Part shown: positions 9,451-15,360 of the stretch, piece by piece
Layout of the letters: the number at the start of each line of letters is the position of its first letter
How positions within the stretch are numbered: position 1 is the stretch's first letter
From: Falsirhodobacter halotolerans
GTDB lineage: Bacteria > Pseudomonadota > Alphaproteobacteria > Rhodobacterales > Rhodobacteraceae
Length of the DNA stretch: 64,000 nt
Reading direction: 5' to 3'
Assembly: GCF_022899245.1 (NCBI RefSeq)
Contig: NZ_JALJAZ010000001.1
Span: 1,705,501-1,769,500, forward strand
Made by a program: the position numbers and the translations under genes
The notes under the pieces: model-generated
Seen by the model: the letters and a program-made list of their open reading frames with translations, nothing else
Told to the model about the DNA's origin: nothing
Databases searched by the model: none

Positions 9451-10200
9451 GTGCATCCTGTGAACGTCCTGCCCGAAGACTGGTCAACCCTTTTGGCGAA
9501 CCGCGACGGGGGGGATCGAAGGGTTTCCGGGCCGACGGGGCGGATCTATGGCCCGCTGGCCGGGCGCGGCGGCGCGTTCGTTCTGGCGCAGGTCGGCCAA
9601 TCGCTGGACGGGCGCGTCGCGACCGAAGGCGGGGACGCGCGCGACATCTCCGGGCCGGCGGGCCTTGCGCATCTGCACCGTCTGCGCGCCCTGTCCGATG
9701 CGGTGATCGTGGGCGCGGGCACGGTAACGGCGGACGACCCCCGCCTGTCGGTGCGGCTGGTCGATGGCCCCGATCCGGTGCGGGTGATCATCGACTGTCA
9801 TGCCACGGTCCCCGATACGGCGGGGATTTTCCACGACGGCGGGGCCCCGGTGTTCATCGTCACCTGCGCCACGTCGTCCCGCACCTACCCCGCCGGGGTG
9901 ACCGTGCTGCCCTTGTCGCAAGCGGAGAACGGCCTTGATCCACGCGATATCCTGGCCGCGCTGGCGGCGCATGGCCTGCACCGGATACTGGTCGAAGGGG
10001 GCGCGCGCACCATCGCGCGGTTCATGACCGCCGGATGCCTCGATCGTCTGCATGTGACCGTGGCCCCCCTGATCATCGGCGCGGGGCCCGCCGGCCTGTC
10101 GCTGCCGCCGGTGGCGTCCCTGACGGCGGCGCAGCGCCCGACGATGGAGGTTCACGATCTGGGGGGCGATATCCTGTTCGATTGCGCCCTCCGCCCCTGA
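9451..10200 (+). CDS. RibD C-terminal-type reductase (diaminohydroxyphosphoribosylaminopyrimidine reductase-like)
   Basis: Stand-alone reductase domain like the C-terminal half of RibD, a DHFR-fold enzyme that reduces a ribosylamino-pyrimidine to the ribityl form with NADPH. In 249 residues the core motifs are SLDGRVATEGGDARDISG, LRALSDAVIVGAGTVTADDPRLSVR, a RVIID strand and RILVEGGARTIA. There is no N-terminal deaminase domain. Start is GTG with GAGG eight bases before. It converges on, and ends three bases from, the methyltransferase of a cluster containing RibA and a 6-PTPS homologue, so it may act on a RibA product in a branch pathway. Confidence 0.85.
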   Translation: MHPVNVLPEDWSTLLANRDGGDRRVSGPTGRIYGPLAGRGGAFVLAQVGQSLDGRVATEGGDARDISGPAGLAHLHRLRALSDAVIVGAGTVTADDPRLSVRLVDGPDPVRVIIDCHATVPDTAGIFHDGGAPVFIVTCATSSRTYPAGVTVLPLSQAENGLDPRDILAALAAHGLHRILVEGGARTIARFMTAGCLDRLHVTVAPLIIGAGPAGLSLPPVASLTAAQRPTMEVHDLGGDILFDCALRP

Positions 10201-10203
10201 CGC

Positions 10204-10983
10204 TCAGGCCGGATGGGGAATGGCCAGAACGTCCAGATGGCCGATCAGCGCGAGGCAGGGGCCGTCCACCTGCGCAAGACGGAAATCGAGCCAGTCGGCC
10301 ACGCCCTCCACCCGCCCCGTTTCGGCCACGGCATCCGCGATGCCGCGCAGCAGATCGCGCTGCAGCGCGGCCTGCCCCTCCCCCAACCGCCAGGGGCTGG
10401 GACCGGAGAGGACCTGAAACCCCATATCATCGGCCACCCGAAGCAAGGTGCCGCCCGCGCTGGCCCCCAAGGCGGGACCGAACCCCTTGTCGCCCTGCTG
10501 ATGGTGGTTGAAGGCCACCGTCACCTCCGCATCCAGCGGATGCGCGACCGACCAGGTCATGGTCCCGTCGTAAGACAGCGCAGCATAGAACGCCGCCCCC
10601 TCGCGCCGCAGGCGGATCAGAAGGCGTTGCATCCAGGCATGGGAACACAGGTCGATCAGGGCCGAGGCGGTGACGAAACCGCCCGTGGGGATCGGAACCA
10701 CGTCGATGCCGGTCAGATCGACCTCCATCGTGTCGATCTCGGGGTGGCGGGTGCGGGCCGCCTGCAGCAATGCGCGGTCGCGGTCGGCCACCGTCCAATG
10801 GGCCTGCAGCGGCAAATGCGGCGCGATGGTGCGTAGGCTGGATCCCGTCCCGCCCCCCAGATCCAGAATGCGCGGCGTATCGGCCTGCCCGACGGCAAGG
10901 GCAAATGCGCCCAGTATGTCGGCATTGCGGGCGACTGCGTCGGCGGGTTCGCGAAGGTCCAGCCATTGGGTGGTGAAGGTCAT
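10204..10983 (-). CDS. Class I SAM-dependent methyltransferase
   Basis: Cytosolic Rossmann-fold methyltransferase of 259 residues. Motif I is ILDLGGGTGSSLRTIAPHLP at about 39-58, followed by an acidic residue at the end of strand 2 (TVADRDRALL) and DTMEVDL. The acceptor is unknown. It is the last gene of a four-gene leftward operon and overlaps the glycosyltransferase by four bases. The operon context (glycosyltransferase, 6-PTPS homologue, dehydrogenase) suggests it tails a small-molecule product. Confidence 0.85.
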   Translation of the reverse strand: MTFTTQWLDLREPADAVARNADILGAFALAVGQADTPRILDLGGGTGSSLRTIAPHLPLQAHWTVADRDRALLQAARTRHPEIDTMEVDLTGIDVVPIPTGGFVTASALIDLCSHAWMQRLLIRLRREGAAFYAALSYDGTMTWSVAHPLDAEVTVAFNHHQQGDKGFGPALGASAGGTLLRVADDMGFQVLSGPSPWRLGEGQAALQRDLLRGIADAVAETGRVEGVADWLDFRLAQVDGPCLALIGHLDVLAIPHPA

Positions 10984-11990
10984 GAACGCTCCGTGATGAA
11001 ATGGGCAATGCGGGCGGCGGTGTCAGACCAGCCCGGCAGACATGCGCCGGCAGCCGCGGATCCGGCCGCATAGGCGCGGCGGCGCGCGGAGTCGGCCAGC
11101 AGGGCGCGCAGGGCGGCGGCAAAGGCGTGCGGATCGTCCGGCGGAACCAGATGGCCTGCCGTGTCCGGCACCACGTCGGGCACCGCGCCCGCATGGCAGG
11201 CGACGATGGGAAGGCCCTGGGACATCGCCTCGGCAAAAACCATGCCATAGCCTTCGAACCGGCTGGCCAGCGCAAAGATATCGGCGGTCGCCAAGGCCGC
11301 GCGCGTGTCCTCCACCCCGCCCGCCAGATCAATGCGCGCGGCCAGCCCCGCCTGCCGGATGCGATGATGCAGATCGTCCGCCACGGCCGGATCCAGCGCG
11401 GCGCCGATGATCGTCGCCCGCCACGGCAGATCGGCCAGCTGTGCCAGCGCGTCGATCAGCACATCATGTCCCTTGCGCCGGATCAGGGTGCCGATGGACA
11501 GGATATGCGGCGGATCGCCCTGCCCCAAGGCCAAGGGCGCGGGATCGGTGCCGGGGATCGCGACCAGCGCATCCTCCACCCCGAACATCCGCGAAACGTC
11601 CCGCGCCGTGGCGGGGGAGGTGACGATCACCCCCCGCGCATGGCGCAGGGCCGCACGCTCCGACATCTCGAGCGCCGGATCGGCCCCGTCTTCCAATGCC
11701 AAGGGATGATGCACCAGCGCGAACAGGCGCAGCCGCGCCGCATCCCGCGCGGCCCAGGCATCCAGCACCCCGAAGGCCAACCCGTCGATCAGGACCGTCG
11801 TGCCGTCCGGCACGCCCGAGAGCGCCCGTTCCGCCGCAGCAAGATCGCGCGGATAGGGAAACCCCGCGCCCAAGGGCAGCAGATCGACCGTCCATCCCAG
11901 ATCGCGCAGCCCCGCCACGACCCGCCGGTCATAGCCGTATCCCCCCGTCCGCAATTCCAGATCGCCGGGATAGGCGAAGACGATCCTCAC
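10980..11990 (-). CDS. Glycosyltransferase family 4
   Basis: GT-B fold retaining glycosyltransferase of 336 residues. The N-terminal half opens with VFAYPGDLELRTGGYGYDRR (acceptor side); the C-terminal nucleotide-sugar half has ILSIGTLIRRKGHDVLI, ALASRFEGYGMVFAEAM with the E-x7-E pair, and GAVPDVV. It starts at GTG, which overlaps the 6-PTPS stop by four bases, so translation is coupled on both sides. Donor and acceptor are unknown; lipid, pterin or ribityl-pyrimidine acceptors are all compatible with the neighbourhood. Confidence 0.88.
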   Translation of the reverse strand: MRIVFAYPGDLELRTGGYGYDRRVVAGLRDLGWTVDLLPLGAGFPYPRDLAAAERALSGVPDGTTVLIDGLAFGVLDAWAARDAARLRLFALVHHPLALEDGADPALEMSERAALRHARGVIVTSPATARDVSRMFGVEDALVAIPGTDPAPLALGQGDPPHILSIGTLIRRKGHDVLIDALAQLADLPWRATIIGAALDPAVADDLHHRIRQAGLAARIDLAGGVEDTRAALATADIFALASRFEGYGMVFAEAMSQGLPIVACHAGAVPDVVPDTAGHLVPPDDPHAFAAALRALLADSARRRAYAAGSAAAGACLPGWSDTAARIAHFITERS

Positions 11991-12379
11991 ACCGCCCCCT
12001 CATACCAACCGCGCGCCGCGTGGGATTCATGCAGCAGAACCCGGATGCGCCGGATGCGCGCCGCCCCCGGCCCGAACGCATCCAGCCGCGCCTTCAGTTC
12101 GGTGAAAATGTGATGACACAGGAATTCGGTCGTCGTCACCTTGCCGCGAAACGCCTCGACCTCGTCAAGGTTCTGGTAGTTCAGCGGGGCCAGCGTCTCG
12201 GACAGGATCGTCGTCGCCGCCCCGATGTCCACGGCCAACCCGTCCTCATCCAGATCTTCGGTGAAAAAGGCGGCATCGACCACGAAGGTCGCGCCGTGCA
12301 TCCCCTGGGCGGGGCCGAAGACGGGGCGGGGCAGGCTGTGCGCGATCATGATGTGATCGCGGACTTCGACGGCAAACAT
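11987..12379 (-). CDS. Divergent 6-pyruvoyl-tetrahydropterin/6-carboxytetrahydropterin synthase homologue
   Basis: T-fold protein of the PTPS/QueD family, 130 residues. Family features: His14 in MIAH, His28 in MHGATFVVDAAF, the VDIGAA and LNYQNLDEVEAF blocks, TTEFLCHHIF and the C-terminal Glu in LHESHAARGWYE. However, canonical members have Cys-x3-His-Gly-His here; this one has Ala24 in place of the catalytic Cys and Ala30 in place of the third zinc His. It may use another ligand or catalyse another reaction. AAAGGA precedes the ATG. Second gene of the operon, 24 bases after the MDR dehydrogenase. Confidence 0.85.
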   Translation of the reverse strand: MFAVEVRDHIMIAHSLPRPVFGPAQGMHGATFVVDAAFFTEDLDEDGLAVDIGAATTILSETLAPLNYQNLDEVEAFRGKVTTTEFLCHHIFTELKARLDAFGPGAARIRRIRVLLHESHAARGWYEGAV

Positions 12380-12403
12380 GGCAGTCCTTTCAGGTATGAG
12401 GGG

Positions 12404-13357
12404 TCAGTAGCGGATGCGGTGGCACAGCGTGGCGGGATCGTCGATGACCTCGCCATAGACTTCGGCAATCTCGTCGAAGGCCGTTTCGTTGGAAATCAGG
12501 GCGTCCAGACGCGGGTCGCACAGCAGTTCCAGCGCCTTCGACATGCGGCGGCGGTGCGGCCAACGGGGGCGTTGCCACGGCGCGACCTGCCCCACCTGCG
12601 AGCTGATGATCTTCAGCCGTCGCGAATGGAAGGCCCCGCCAAGGGGAATGCTGGCGCGCCGGTCGCCATACCAGCTGGCCTCCACCACCCGCCCCTCATC
12701 GGCCATCGTCTCGATCGCCTGCGACAGGGCGGCGTCGGCGGCGGTGGCGTTGATCGCCACATCCGCGCGTTCCTGCGGCGACCCGCCGGTCAGGCCCAAC
12801 GCCTCCAGAACGCGGCCACGGGTGGAATCGATCTCCACCACCCGCAGATCCACCCCCGGCACCTGCCCCACCAGATGCGCGACCAGAAGACCGACGACAC
12901 CCGCGCCGAAGACATTGACCCGGTCCCCCGGCATCACGCCCGCATCCCAGACGATGTTCAGCGCGGTTTCCATATTCGCGGCCAACACCGCGCGGTCGGG
13001 CGGCAGATCGCCCGGCAGCGCGATCAGATCGGTCGAAGGGACCTGGAACACGTCCTGATGCGGATGCAGGCAGAAGACCGTCCGCCCCTCATCGGTCTGG
13101 CCAACCACGGCATAGCCGTATTTGACGGGAAACGGCAGATCGCCCCCCTGATGCGGCCCGCGCATCCGCGTGAATTCGCTTTCGGGAACACGGCCGGAAA
13201 ACACCAGCGCCTCGGTCCCCCGGCTGATGCCGGAGGCCAGCGCCCGCACCCGCACCAGCCCCTCGGCCGGGGTCAGCGCCTCGGACCGGATTTCGCACCG
13301 GCGCGGGGCGGTGAACCACAAGGCGCGGGCGGGGATCGAGGCGCGGTCGTCGGGCAT
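12404..13357 (-). CDS. Zinc-less medium-chain dehydrogenase/reductase
   Basis: MDR-superfamily oxidoreductase, 317 residues, first gene of the leftward operon. The Rossmann motif VNVFGAGVVGLLVA identifies the nucleotide-binding half. The usual catalytic-zinc motifs are changed: ASGISRGTE replaces CGICGTD, and KYGYAVVG replaces GHE..G.V. This resembles BchC-like and other zinc-independent members. The start was set at the ATG of MPDDRASIPARAL with AGGAAC nearby. It probably supplies a redox step in the cluster's product pathway; the substrate is unknown. Confidence 0.82.
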   Translation of the reverse strand: MPDDRASIPARALWFTAPRRCEIRSEALTPAEGLVRVRALASGISRGTEALVFSGRVPESEFTRMRGPHQGGDLPFPVKYGYAVVGQTDEGRTVFCLHPHQDVFQVPSTDLIALPGDLPPDRAVLAANMETALNIVWDAGVMPGDRVNVFGAGVVGLLVAHLVGQVPGVDLRVVEIDSTRGRVLEALGLTGGSPQERADVAINATAADAALSQAIETMADEGRVVEASWYGDRRASIPLGGAFHSRRLKIISSQVGQVAPWQRPRWPHRRRMSKALELLCDPRLDALISNETAFDEIAEVYGEVIDDPATLCHRIRY

Positions 13358-13440
13358 GGGTGTTCCTAATTCGGGTCCGTCCCTCGCAGCTAGCGCGCGA
13401 CGCGACCTTCGCAAGATCGCGTGGGCGCGTCGATTTCAGG

Positions 13441-13466
13441 GGAACCCAATCCCGCCTTCGCGCGTA
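13441..13466 (+). promoter_or_regulatory. Possible EcfG-like promoter upstream of ribA
   Basis: GGAAC (13441-13445) and CGTA (13463-13466) are 17 bases apart, one base off the EcfG consensus, and end 32 bases before the ribA ATG. No FMN riboswitch-like structure is visible in the 140-base divergent region. Confidence 0.4.
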
Positions 13467-13497
13467 GTGTCAGAAGGCCATTTCGGAGGAAAATGCC

Positions 13498-14613
13498 ATG
13501 ACCGTCCACGACCGTCAGACCCGAGTATCCCACGCGGTCAATCATGGCCTGTTTTCCGGCCCGGCCATCCATTTCGAACGCGCGGTGTCCGAACTGCGTT
13601 ATGGCCGTCCGGTGCTTTTGCGCGACGGCGCGACCGCCACGGCGATCATGGCGCTGGACGCCGCATCGCCGGATCAGTTCAACCGGATGGCGGACGCGGC
13701 GGAGGGGCGACACGACCTTTTCCTGAGCGGGCAACGCGCGGTGCGCATGGATGTCGCCTCCTCCTCCGGCATCCTTCTGCCGCTTTCGGGCGTCGGGCAT
13801 GACGCGGCGGTGCGTCTGGCCTATCGCCGGGGGGCGACCTTGCCGGGCACATGGCGTCCGGCCCCCGCCTTGATGCGCGCCGCGTCGGACCTGACGGACA
13901 GCGCGCTTCTCCTGCCCGCCCTCGTTTGCGCCGCGCCGACGGCCGCCTTTGCCGGTTGCGCCGAAATCTCGGTCGAGGATCTGCGCCGCACCGCGTCCGC
14001 CCGCACCCAGTTCGAGATCGTCGCCCGCACCCCCGTGCCCCTGCGCGATCTGGGCATGTGCGATTTCGTTGTGTTCCGCGGCGGTCTGGCCCAGCGCGAT
14101 CAGGTGGCCATCGTCGTCGGCACCCCCGACCTGTCCAAACCGGTTCCGGTGCGGATCCATTCTTCCTGCATCACGGGCGATCTGGCGGGATCGTTGAAAT
14201 GCGATTGCGGCGATCAGCTGCAAGGCGGTCTCGCCGCGCTGAAAGAGGCGGGGGGCGGTGTCCTCATCTATCTGGATCAGGAAGGACGTGGCACCGGGCT
14301 GCGGGCAAAGATGCGCGCCTATGCCCTGCAGCATGATGGTCTGGACACATTGGACGCGGATGCCGAGTTGGGCTTTCACGACGATCACCGCCGGTATGAG
14401 GCCGCATCGGCCATGCTGCGGGCGATGGGCATCGCCTCCGTCGATCTGCATACCAACAACCCCACCAAGGTCGCGGCCCTGCAGAAGGACGGGATCGACG
14501 TGGCCAGCCGCAAGGGCGTTCCCGCCCGCATCACGTCCGAAAACCTGAACTATCTGCGGACCAAGAGCCTTCGGGCCGGTCACATCATCGATTATCTTCC
14601 GGTCGGGGGCTGA
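13498..14613 (+). CDS. ribA: GTP cyclohydrolase II with N-terminal extension
   Basis: Converts GTP to 2,5-diamino-6-ribosylamino-pyrimidinone 5'-phosphate, formate and pyrophosphate, the entry step to riboflavin. The C-terminal 190 residues hold the full active site: zinc cysteines Cys224, Cys235 and Cys237 in SSCITGDLAGSLKCDCG, the YLDQEGRGTGLRAKMRAY block and TNNPTK. The N-terminal 180 residues are an extension seen in related alphaproteobacterial RibA proteins, without intact RibB motifs that I recognise. GGAGG precedes the ATG. It shares an operon with a CDP-alcohol phosphatidyltransferase and diverges from the MDR/6-PTPS operon, so it may serve that cluster rather than bulk riboflavin synthesis. 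Confidence 0.93.
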   Translation: MTVHDRQTRVSHAVNHGLFSGPAIHFERAVSELRYGRPVLLRDGATATAIMALDAASPDQFNRMADAAEGRHDLFLSGQRAVRMDVASSSGILLPLSGVGHDAAVRLAYRRGATLPGTWRPAPALMRAASDLTDSALLLPALVCAAPTAAFAGCAEISVEDLRRTASARTQFEIVARTPVPLRDLGMCDFVVFRGGLAQRDQVAIVVGTPDLSKPVPVRIHSSCITGDLAGSLKCDCGDQLQGGLAALKEAGGGVLIYLDQEGRGTGLRAKMRAYALQHDGLDTLDADAELGFHDDHRRYEAASAMLRAMGIASVDLHTNNPTKVAALQKDGIDVASRKGVPARITSENLNYLRTKSLRAGHIIDYLPVGG

Positions 14614-14616
14614 GCC

Positions 14617-15360
14617 ATGGCCGACGTGACCCTTGGTCCACCGGATCGGGTTACCCCCCTGCCCGGCGCACTGCTGACCTTTGGTGTGGCCGGGATCGGG
14701 CTGATCACCGCCGTTCTGACGGCGCTGAACTGGGAGGGCGGCGCCCTGGCATTGGTCATGGCGCTTTATGCGGCGGCATCGATGCTGACCGTCCAAGCGC
14801 TGGCGGGGCATGGACCACGGCCCTTCGGATGGGCGAATGTGGTGACGACCTTCCGGCTGGCCGCCACCTGCTTCGTGGCGGCCGCCCTGATCACCGCTGC
14901 CCGGGATCTGGATACGGGACCGGTGTGGATCGCCATCGGCGTCACCCTTGTCGCTCTGGCCCTGGACGGAATCGACGGATTTCTCGCCCGCCGCAGCGGC
15001 CTCTGCTCCCCCTTTGGGGCCCGTTTCGACATGGAGGTGGATGCGGCGCTCATCCTGCTTCTTTCGGTCGCGGCGTGGGAATTGGGCAAGGCGGGCGGTT
15101 GGATTGTCGCGATCGGCGCGATGCGCTATGTCTTCGTTGCGGCGCAGGCCGTCATCCCCAAACTGCGCGCGCCCCTGCCCCCGTCCTTCCTGCGCAAGGC
15201 GGTGTGCGTGGTGCAGGTCTCGGCCCTGTGCATCGCGGTGACCCCGGTCGTCCCGCCCGCGATTTCCGCCCCGTTGGCCGGAATCGCGCTTGTCGCCCTC
15301 AGCTGGTCGTTTCTGCGCGACACCGTTTATCTGCTGCGCGGCGGGGATCAGGCGTTCTGA
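14617..15360 (+). CDS. CDP-alcohol phosphatidyltransferase family membrane protein
   Basis: Polytopic membrane enzyme that moves a phospho-alcohol or phosphatidyl group from a CDP-linked donor to an alcohol acceptor. The diagnostic signature D-x2-DG-x2-AR-x8-G-x3-D-x3-D is complete (Asp117, Asp120, Gly121, Ala124, Arg125, Gly134, Asp138, Asp142). About seven hydrophobic segments flank it in 247 residues. The start codon follows ribA by three bases, so the two are one operon. The odd pairing with RibA suggests the lipid or alcohol substrate relates to the neighbouring pathway. Its 3' end overlaps the convergent oxidoreductase by 13 bases. Confidence 0.88.
   Translation: MADVTLGPPDRVTPLPGALLTFGVAGIGLITAVLTALNWEGGALALVMALYAAASMLTVQALAGHGPRPFGWANVVTTFRLAATCFVAAALITAARDLDTGPVWIAIGVTLVALALDGIDGFLARRSGLCSPFGARFDMEVDAALILLLSVAAWELGKAGGWIVAIGAMRYVFVAAQAVIPKLRAPLPPSFLRKAVCVVQVSALCIAVTPVVPPAISAPLAGIALVALSWSFLRDTVYLLRGGDQAF

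What the first reader, a model, noticed from the sequence alone, without database searches (positions are those of the whole stretch)
9451..15360. Cluster combining RibA, RibD-like reductase and a 6-PTPS homologue with glycosyl-, methyl- and CDP-alcohol transferases
Seen: seven genes in 6 kb. A coupled leftward operon (MDR dehydrogenase, 6-PTPS homologue, GT4, methyltransferase) diverges from a coupled ribA/CDP-alcohol phosphatidyltransferase operon and converges on a stand-alone RibD reductase domain. Known: RibA opens GTP to a pyrimidine that RibD-type reductases take to the ribityl form; PTPS makes pterins from dihydroneopterin triphosphate. Inference: a branch pathway makes a pterin- or ribityl-pyrimidine-derived compound that is reduced, glycosylated, methylated and perhaps linked to a lipid or CDP-alcohol. 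I know of no described pathway with this gene set.
Basis: partly seen in the sequence, partly recalled or inferred. Interest (0 to 1): 0.8.

Follow-up and report, generated by a model that had tools for sequence, protein, structure and literature searches.

The report
Orphan pathway branching from riboflavin synthesis
A cluster of seven genes that recurs in distantly related bacteria probably takes an early vitamin B2 intermediate and turns it into a sugar-bearing, methylated and perhaps membrane-anchored compound that has not been identified.

Summary
The set is not an accident of one lineage: in an even draw of the phylum the PTPS homologue has the dehydrogenase beside it in 26 of 26 loci, the glycosyltransferase in 25 and the RibD reductase in 22; 20 random regions gave two glycosyltransferase hits only. 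The PTPS homologue is no PTPS by its motifs: it is subfamily PTPS-IV (FGPAQ; SCO6650, PDB 3d7j). That PTPS-IV neighbours PF00925 and RibD_C is already in print; I found no reported product. Best reading: RibA makes the diamino-ribosylamino-pyrimidinone phosphate, the stand-alone reductase makes it ribityl, PTPS-IV binds it or a derived pterin, and the product is redox-modified, glycosylated, methylated and probably joined to a lipid. The chemistry is inferred. Cluster RibAs fall in separate parts of the RibA tree, which favours a GTP-derived precursor. RibA and the CDP-alcohol gene are in fewer than half of the loci. CofG and CofD are missing here, against F420.

The parts
9451..10200 (+). Stand-alone RibD-type reductase domain, no deaminase domain (probable DARPP reductase)
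   Evidence: PF01872 150.7 bits and no other Pfam family; nearest solved relative 6p8c, annotated 2,5-diamino-6-ribosylamino-4(3H)-pyrimidinone 5'-phosphate reductase; deaminase motif absent in 84 of 84 cluster RibD frames, window included, and found in the genome's full-length RibD as positive control
10204..10983 (-). Class I SAM methyltransferase, distinct conserved family
   Evidence: PF13649 27.1 bits; alignment A2 of 19 with 24 invariant columns; near PTPS in 90 of 95 and 18 of 26 loci
10980..11990 (-). GT4 glycosyltransferase (GTG start, overlaps the PTPS stop)
   Evidence: PF13692 105.9 bits; 83 of 95 and 25 of 26 loci
11987..12379 (-). PTPS-IV subfamily protein, SCO6650 type, without PTPS/QueD catalytic and zinc motifs
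   Evidence: PDB 3d7j E 2.1e-52 by profile; AlphaFold2 model matches 3d7j with TM 0.94, rmsd 1.3; FGPAQ, and HGA in place of HGH
12404..13357 (-). MDR-superfamily 'zinc-binding alcohol dehydrogenase', BchC-like, SRGTE motif (a TTG start at 13414 is possible)
   Evidence: TIGR01202 46.6 bits, below cut-off; directly upstream of PTPS on the same strand in 81 of 95 and 26 of 26 loci
13498..14613 (+). GTP cyclohydrolase II (RibA), cluster-specific branch
   Evidence: PF00925 167.3 bits; CDCG motif and the Tyr aligned with E. coli Tyr105 kept; groups with cluster RibAs of Rhizobiales and Xanthomonas, not with the genome's other RibA
14617..15360 (+). CDP-alcohol phosphatidyltransferase with intact D..DG..AR...G...D...D motif
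   Evidence: PF01066 70 bits; motif in 51 of 52 cluster members

Best explanation
The seven genes are one compact copy of a widespread pathway centred on PTPS-IV that appears to move between lineages. Proposed order: (1) RibA opens GTP to 2,5-diamino-6-ribosylamino-4(3H)-pyrimidinone 5'-phosphate (DARPP). (2) The stand-alone RibD reductase turns the ribosyl into a ribityl chain without prior deamination, as in archaea and fungi (recall), so the 2-amino group stays. (3) PTPS-IV, which keeps the T-fold and the glutamate expected to anchor a 2-amino-4-oxo-pyrimidine, binds this compound or a pterin made from it and catalyses a zinc-independent step such as ring closure or rearrangement. (4) The BchC-like dehydrogenase oxidises or reduces a side-chain alcohol or ketone. 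(5) GT4 adds a sugar and the methyltransferase a methyl group. (6) The CDP-alcohol transferase makes a phosphodiester, most likely to a diacylglycerol-type lipid, giving a membrane-anchored head group. Shown: gene families, conservation as a unit, kept or lost motifs, separate housekeeping copies. Inferred: every substrate and the order of steps.
For: Unit conservation across classes and phyla with a negative control. Pairwise distances of PTPS, MDR, GT4, MT and RibD correlate at r 0.57-0.82 over 62 loci, against at most 0.21 in 200 shuffles per pair, so the genes have largely shared one history. Cluster RibAs fall in separate parts of the RibA tree: a cluster-only branch (33 rows), 10 rows inside the branch of housekeeping RibAs of the family, and a Streptomyces form on a long, unsure branch; repeated recruitment of one activity argues that DARPP matters. 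The Streptomyces cluster RibA has Met where E. coli has Tyr105 and sits beside a creatininase-family gene; from recall, that change gives the formylated product, and archaeal ArfB, also of the creatininase family, deformylates it to DARPP, so the exception may point to the same intermediate. RibD, without deaminase (84 of 84), is present in 22 of 26 loci, while RibE, RibB and RibH were found in 0 of 127 cluster loci by tblastn with this genome's own proteins at E 1e-5, so the set is not a riboflavin operon. In longer clusters a flippase-like LPG_synthase_TM protein and a sulfatase-like membrane protein accompany the CDP-alcohol gene, which favours a lipid-linked, exported product.
Against: RibA lies near PTPS in only 11 of 26 and 30 of 95 loci, the CDP-alcohol gene in 12 of 26 and 35 of 95 (some loci are short contigs). 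In 4 of 9 tested genomes with a cluster RibA it is the only RibA found at E 1e-20, so there it may also serve riboflavin. In the same genus, G150 has the cluster without its own RibA. OpgH, FkbM and cytochrome b561 genes recur too, and this reading does not explain them. The two creatininase-family proteins scanned score far below the ArfB cut-off (37.0 and 24.4 against 180 bits) and highest with MftE, also below its cut-off; other creatininase genes sit beside Tyr-type RibAs or without any RibA in reach. Two Streptomyces PTPS-IV genes stand alone. The flippase-like and sulfatase-like genes are not in the window. No substrate has been tested.
Confidence: 0.5

Rival explanations
1. The cluster makes a soluble glycosylated pterin cofactor or pigment (functionally like cyanobacterial biopterin glucoside, recall); the CDP-alcohol gene is an occasional passenger.
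For: The CDP-alcohol gene is present in only 12 of 26 and 35 of 95 loci; among 51 GT4-type hits, UDP-glucose:tetrahydrobiopterin glucosyltransferase 5zer also matches (24.5 bits).
Against: That match is weak and far from the best (6kih, 68 bits). PTPS-IV lacks the catalytic residues of 6-pyruvoyl-tetrahydropterin synthase. RibA rather than FolE was the cyclohydrolase seen in the clusters; FolE was not itself searched for in them. A flippase-like membrane protein is present in 11 of 26 loci.
Confidence: 0.2
2. PTPS-IV works on the FolE2 product or another pterin, and RibA and RibD are in the cluster only to boost riboflavin or FAD supply for its oxidoreductases.
For: RibA is not constant (11 of 26); the genome has FolE2; 4 of 9 tested genomes have only the cluster RibA at E 1e-20.
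Against: RibD without a deaminase domain (84 of 84) cannot by itself feed bacterial riboflavin synthesis (recall), which already has a full RibD and a ribE-ribB-ribH set here. RibE, RibB and RibH: 0 of 127 cluster loci. RibD is among the most constant members (22 of 26).
Confidence: 0.17
3. The cluster belongs to F420 (deazaflavin) biosynthesis, as PMC5041015 says of PTPS-IV from unpublished work.
For: The statement in PMC5041015 (passage seen); F420 also starts from a ribitylaminopyrimidine (recall).
Against: This genome, rated 100% complete, has no match for CofG (TIGR03550) or CofD (PF01933); the set holds a glycosyltransferase and a methyltransferase that F420 synthesis does not use (recall).
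Confidence: 0.03
4. The seven genes are neighbours by chance in one lineage.
For: Patchy occurrence: 16 of 198 family genomes, 27 of 398 phylum genomes, own genome included in both.
Against: Conserved adjacency across orders and phyla against a negative control.
Confidence: 0.01

Closest known systems
PTPS-IV subfamily of COG0720; S. coelicolor SCO6650 (PDB 3d7j)
   Same: Signature FGPAQ, no HGH zinc motif, same fold (TM 0.94, 52% identity); neighbourhood with PF00925 and PF01872 in print (PMC5445326 section 19)
   Different: The printed section names PF00925 'FolE2' and does not describe the MDR, GT4, methyltransferase, CDP-alcohol and flippase-like partners (its supplement was not seen); I found no reported function. 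The genes around SCO6650 itself were not looked at here
Archaeal and fungal order of riboflavin synthesis (reduction before deamination; recalled)
   Same: Supply of DARPP and a stand-alone reductase domain
   Different: No deaminase domain on the RibD and no RibE, RibB or RibH in the cluster loci; further genes glycosylate, methylate and probably lipidate
Toxoflavin-type clusters (recalled, not tested)
   Same: GTP cyclohydrolase II, RibD-like protein and methyltransferase in a cluster outside vitamin synthesis
   Different: No PTPS-IV, GT4 or CDP-alcohol transferase (recall)
BchC (bacteriochlorophyllide dehydrogenase)
   Same: Best NCBIfam match of the MDR protein; SRGTE motif in 114 of 121 cluster frames, its likeness to BchC recalled
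   Different: 46.6 bits against a cut-off of 291.25; not a BchC

Membership tests
6-pyruvoyl-tetrahydropterin synthase (PTPS-II) | CxxxxxHGH motif (catalytic Cys and zinc His pair) | tested here: not met
   HGH in 0 of 130, HGA in 130 of 130 frames. 80 of these loci were found with patterns covering part of this stretch, but HGA is also in 16 of 16 and 26 of 26 found without them
QueD (PTPS-I) | CxxxHGH motif; score over the TIGR03367 cut-off | tested here: not met
   33.3 bits against a cut-off of 89.25; a separate QueD-like gene lies on contig C3 (85.7 bits, just under the cut-off, only the matched stretch given)
PTPS-IV | FGPAQ signature | tested here: met
   In the window protein and in 129 of 130 frames; 16 of 16 and 26 of 26 in the sets found without that pattern
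PTPS-IV | Gene neighbourhood with PF00925 and PF01872, as reported in PMC5445326 | tested here: met
   Both in the window; RibD 22 of 26 and RibA 11 of 26 in the independent sample
GTP cyclohydrolase II | Zinc cysteines and catalytic Tyr/Arg of E. coli RibA (roles recalled) | tested here: met
   C-TGD-GS-CDCG and the RAY-LQ tyrosine kept, alignment to 2bz0. TIGR00505 score 175.7, below its cut-off of 205.85
Bifunctional RibD | N-terminal deaminase domain | tested here: not met
   Only PF01872 found; motif absent in 84 of 84 cluster frames, found in the genome's other RibD, which has PF00383
CDP-alcohol phosphatidyltransferase | D..DG..AR...G...D...D motif (recalled) | tested here: met
   51 of 52, alignment A3 of 13
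BchC | Score over the TIGR01202 cut-off | tested here: not met
   46.6 against 291.25 bits
F420 biosynthesis | CofG and CofD in the genome | tested here: not met
   No match for TIGR03550 or PF01933
DARPP reductase | Reduces DARPP with NAD(P)H | not testable with these tools
   Needs an enzyme assay

The most novel reading that the evidence does not exclude
An undescribed class of membrane-anchored redox or light-absorbing compound exists in many bacteria: a glycosylated, methylated ribityl-pterin (or ribityl-diaminopyrimidine) joined to a phospholipid tail, made from the first riboflavin intermediate by a pathway that spread between phyla, with PTPS-IV as a zinc-free ring-forming enzyme of a kind not yet known.
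Probability: 0.25. Interest if true: 0.88.

Novelty: new variant of a known kind. Interest (0 to 1): 0.6.

Why it matters
PTPS-IV has had a solved structure since 2008 (3d7j, release date) and a printed neighbourhood since 2017, yet I found no reported function in the library searched. Defining its wider gene set turns it into a testable pathway: a second use of the riboflavin entry point in bacteria from Rhodobacterales to Streptomyces, with a probable new lipid-linked or glycosylated compound. It also shows that several PTPS-IV proteins in public records are labelled 6-carboxytetrahydropterin (queuosine) synthase against their motifs.

Tried and rejected
Rejected: chance neighbours (control); F420 synthesis in this organism; queuosine synthesis (motifs, and a separate QueD-like gene); PTPS activity (motifs); the RibA and RibD here being the genome's only copies; a riboflavin operon. 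Absence of FolE first suggested that RibA plus PTPS-IV might replace it for folate; FolE2 is present, so I dropped this.

A mistake of mine, mended: the deaminase motif used was wrong (it also missed the genome's own full-length RibD, which was among its 85 frames). One search repeats the test with a wider motif that does find that control and finds none in the 84 cluster frames. Several of those frames run long before the reductase domain because they were taken from stop to stop.

Led nowhere: literature searches for the gene set gave no paper on it; the two listed were not opened. One search, for SCO6650 and SCO6655, listed one metabolic model not opened; one search listed a plant RIBA paper not opened; Phillips 2012 is not held. 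Profile searches against solved structures gave only weak generic matches for the methyltransferase, generic MDR enzymes and generic CDP-alcohol transferases. A scan of the divergent region found no promoter-like site and two terminator-like ones. GC content around the cluster is within the range of the window, so composition gives no sign of recent transfer.
Full report
OBSERVATION. The seven genes are present as stated. The leftward operon reads MDR dehydrogenase, PTPS homologue, GT4, methyltransferase, with 4-base overlaps at PTPS/GT4 and GT4/MT and 24 bases between MDR and PTPS. It diverges from ribA and the CDP-alcohol phosphatidyltransferase gene (3 bases apart), and converges on the RibD reductase gene. 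The likely MDR start is the ATG at 13357. Two of the family names are weak by curated cut-offs (MDR below that of PF00107, methyltransferase only just over that of PF13649).

NOT THE HOUSEKEEPING COPIES. The window lies in a genome of 3.08 Mb in 3 contigs, rated 100% complete. It has another GTP cyclohydrolase II at C1:2355614 (TIGR00505 215.4 bits, over the cut-off), a full-length RibD at C1:1397939 (TIGR00326 343.7 bits, PF00383 deaminase present), and around C1:1647 kb a lumazine-binding (RibE-type), RibB-type (with a divergent RibA domain), lumazine synthase (RibH) and NusB run. It has FolE2 but no match for FolE, and a separate QueD-like gene (85.7 bits against 89.25, only the matched stretch given). 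The window RibA is 58% identical to a Martelella (Rhizobiales) cluster RibA and 54% to a Xanthomonas one, but 36% to the genome's other RibA. In the tree of 60 RibA sequences it sits in a starred group of cluster RibAs.

A CONSERVED UNIT. Occurrence is patchy: 16 of 198 family genomes at E 1e-39 or better, own included (two further genomes had weak hits, E 2e-7 and 5e-5, left aside), and 27 of 398 phylum genomes, own included. Within the genus the MDR gene is in 5 of 7 genomes. In 95 loci (15, 80) the families occur near PTPS as: MT 90, MDR 88, GT4 83, RibD 57, CDP-alcohol 35, RibA 30 (by tblastn, MDR 87 and CDP-alcohol 36); some loci are short contigs. All seven are found in 14 of 95. In the independent phylum draw (26 loci, own locus excluded): MDR 26, GT4 25, RibD 22, MT 18, CDP-alcohol 12, OpgH 12, RibA 11, flippase-like 11, FkbM 8, cytochrome b561 7, creatininase 6, sulfatase-like 5; all seven in 1 of 26. 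In 20 random 20-kb regions from 11 cluster-bearing genomes only two GT4 hits appeared. MDR lies directly upstream of PTPS on the same strand in 26 of 26 and 81 of 95. Distances of five core proteins over 62 loci correlate at r 0.57-0.82 against a largest shuffled value of 0.21; shared species history contributes to this. RibE, RibB and RibH of this genome find no match at E 1e-5 in 127 cluster loci (95, 26 and 6 plasmid loci). The set reaches Thiodictyon, Methylosinus, rhizobial plasmids and a Streptomyces plasmid with CDP-alcohol, MDR, PTPS, GT4, MT, creatininase and RibA in one run, no RibD listed. An Arthrobacter plasmid has MDR, PTPS and GT4. Two Streptomyces plasmids have PTPS-IV alone.

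WHAT THE PTPS HOMOLOGUE IS. It is PTPS-IV. The profile hits PDB 3d7j (SCO6650) at E 2.1e-52, next best 2.1e-5. The AlphaFold2 model (mean pLDDT 93.0) superposes on 3d7j at TM 0.94, 52% identity. FGPAQ is the PTPS-IV mark named in PMC5445326 (section 19 read whole). HGH is HGA in 130 of 130 frames and the CxxxHGH form in 0 of 130; in the sets found without a pattern on that stretch HGA is in 16 of 16 and 26 of 26. The LDH stretch of PTPS is LNY in the window; an LDH string occurs somewhere in 3 of 130 frames. The glutamate of the ESH stretch, which in this fold should anchor the pterin ring (recall), is invariant in 16 of 16; the full ESH string is in 114 of 130. From recall, the 3d7j paper reports no PTPS activity and no bound zinc; I saw only the PDB title and date.

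RIBA IN THE CLUSTER. The tree shows three placements: a cluster-only branch of 33 sequences (Alphaproteobacteria, a Xanthomonas and four genomes of another class of the phylum; support 97/77, so not starred), 10 cluster sequences of the window's family and near kin inside the branch of its housekeeping RibAs, and the Streptomyces sequence on a long branch whose place is unsure. The labels need 4 changes on the tree (at least 3 forced by starred branches) against 14.2 shuffled. So RibA was recruited more than once, or moved out and in. Two rows were dropped before the tree: L063, poor, and L186, the RibB-type protein. Of 9 genomes whose cluster region holds a RibA, 5 have a second one elsewhere and 4 (G409, G393, G209, G488) do not at E 1e-20. 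Of the other 15, 13 have RibA only elsewhere, G074 has one copy about 12 kb from PTPS and another far off, and G291 has no hit. Of 45 cluster RibA frames 44 keep the Tyr of E. coli Tyr105; the Streptomyces one has Met and lies beside a creatininase-family gene. From recall (Spoonamore, Bandarian), Met there yields the formylated pyrimidine, and archaeal ArfB, of the creatininase family, deformylates it. Against this: the two creatininase-family proteins scanned score highest with MftE and far below the ArfB cut-off; four further ones lie in loci with Tyr-type RibAs, and others in loci with no RibA in reach.

MECHANISM. Shown: families, motifs, conservation. Inferred: GTP to DARPP (RibA), to the ribityl form (RibD without deaminase: motif absent in 84 of 84, control found), PTPS-IV binding and a zinc-free step, redox by MDR, glycosylation, methylation, phosphodiester to a lipid. 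The lipid step rests on the intact CDP-alcohol motif (51 of 52) and on flippase-like and sulfatase-like membrane partners in longer clusters. None of these partners is in the window next to the cluster, which makes the lipid step the weakest part here.

KNOWN OR NEW. In print: PTPS-IV as a subfamily, its FGPAQ mark, and its neighbourhood with PF00925 (there called FolE2) and PF01872 in a node of 561 sequences (PMC5445326). PMC5041015 (passages) says PTPS-IV is involved in F420 synthesis, from unpublished work; this genome lacks CofG and CofD. Searches for the wider set or for PTPS-IV found no other description, in an open-licence library only. So the kind is known in outline; the fuller gene set, the controls and a coherent pathway proposal are the addition; the product is unknown.

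Noticed in passing
L030, L034, L038, L098, L151 and others, near the MDR gene: A glucans biosynthesis glucosyltransferase (MdoH/OpgH) gene lies in 39 of 95 and 12 of 26 cluster loci; no explanation.
   Followed up: partly
L025, L042, L047, L087, L150: Cytochrome b561, FkbM methyltransferase, sulfatase-like and LPG_synthase_TM (flippase-like) genes recur in longer clusters but were not seen beside the window's cluster.
   Followed up: partly
L146 (15001-15426), L153 (12001-12399): PTPS-IV genes alone on Streptomyces plasmids, without the partners, with BTAD-type regulators in the region.
   Followed up: no
L024 (genome G150, same genus): The cluster is present without its RibA, and the genome has one RibA elsewhere: perhaps a natural loss.
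   Followed up: partly
G101:C1:2718187-2719365: The housekeeping-type RibA match of this genome holds one TGA and one TAG, perhaps an artefact of the match edge or a broken gene.
   Followed up: no
Annotated plasmid records behind L147, L148, L150, L151, L152: PTPS-IV proteins are labelled 6-carboxytetrahydropterin synthase (queuosine), which their motifs do not support.
   Followed up: yes
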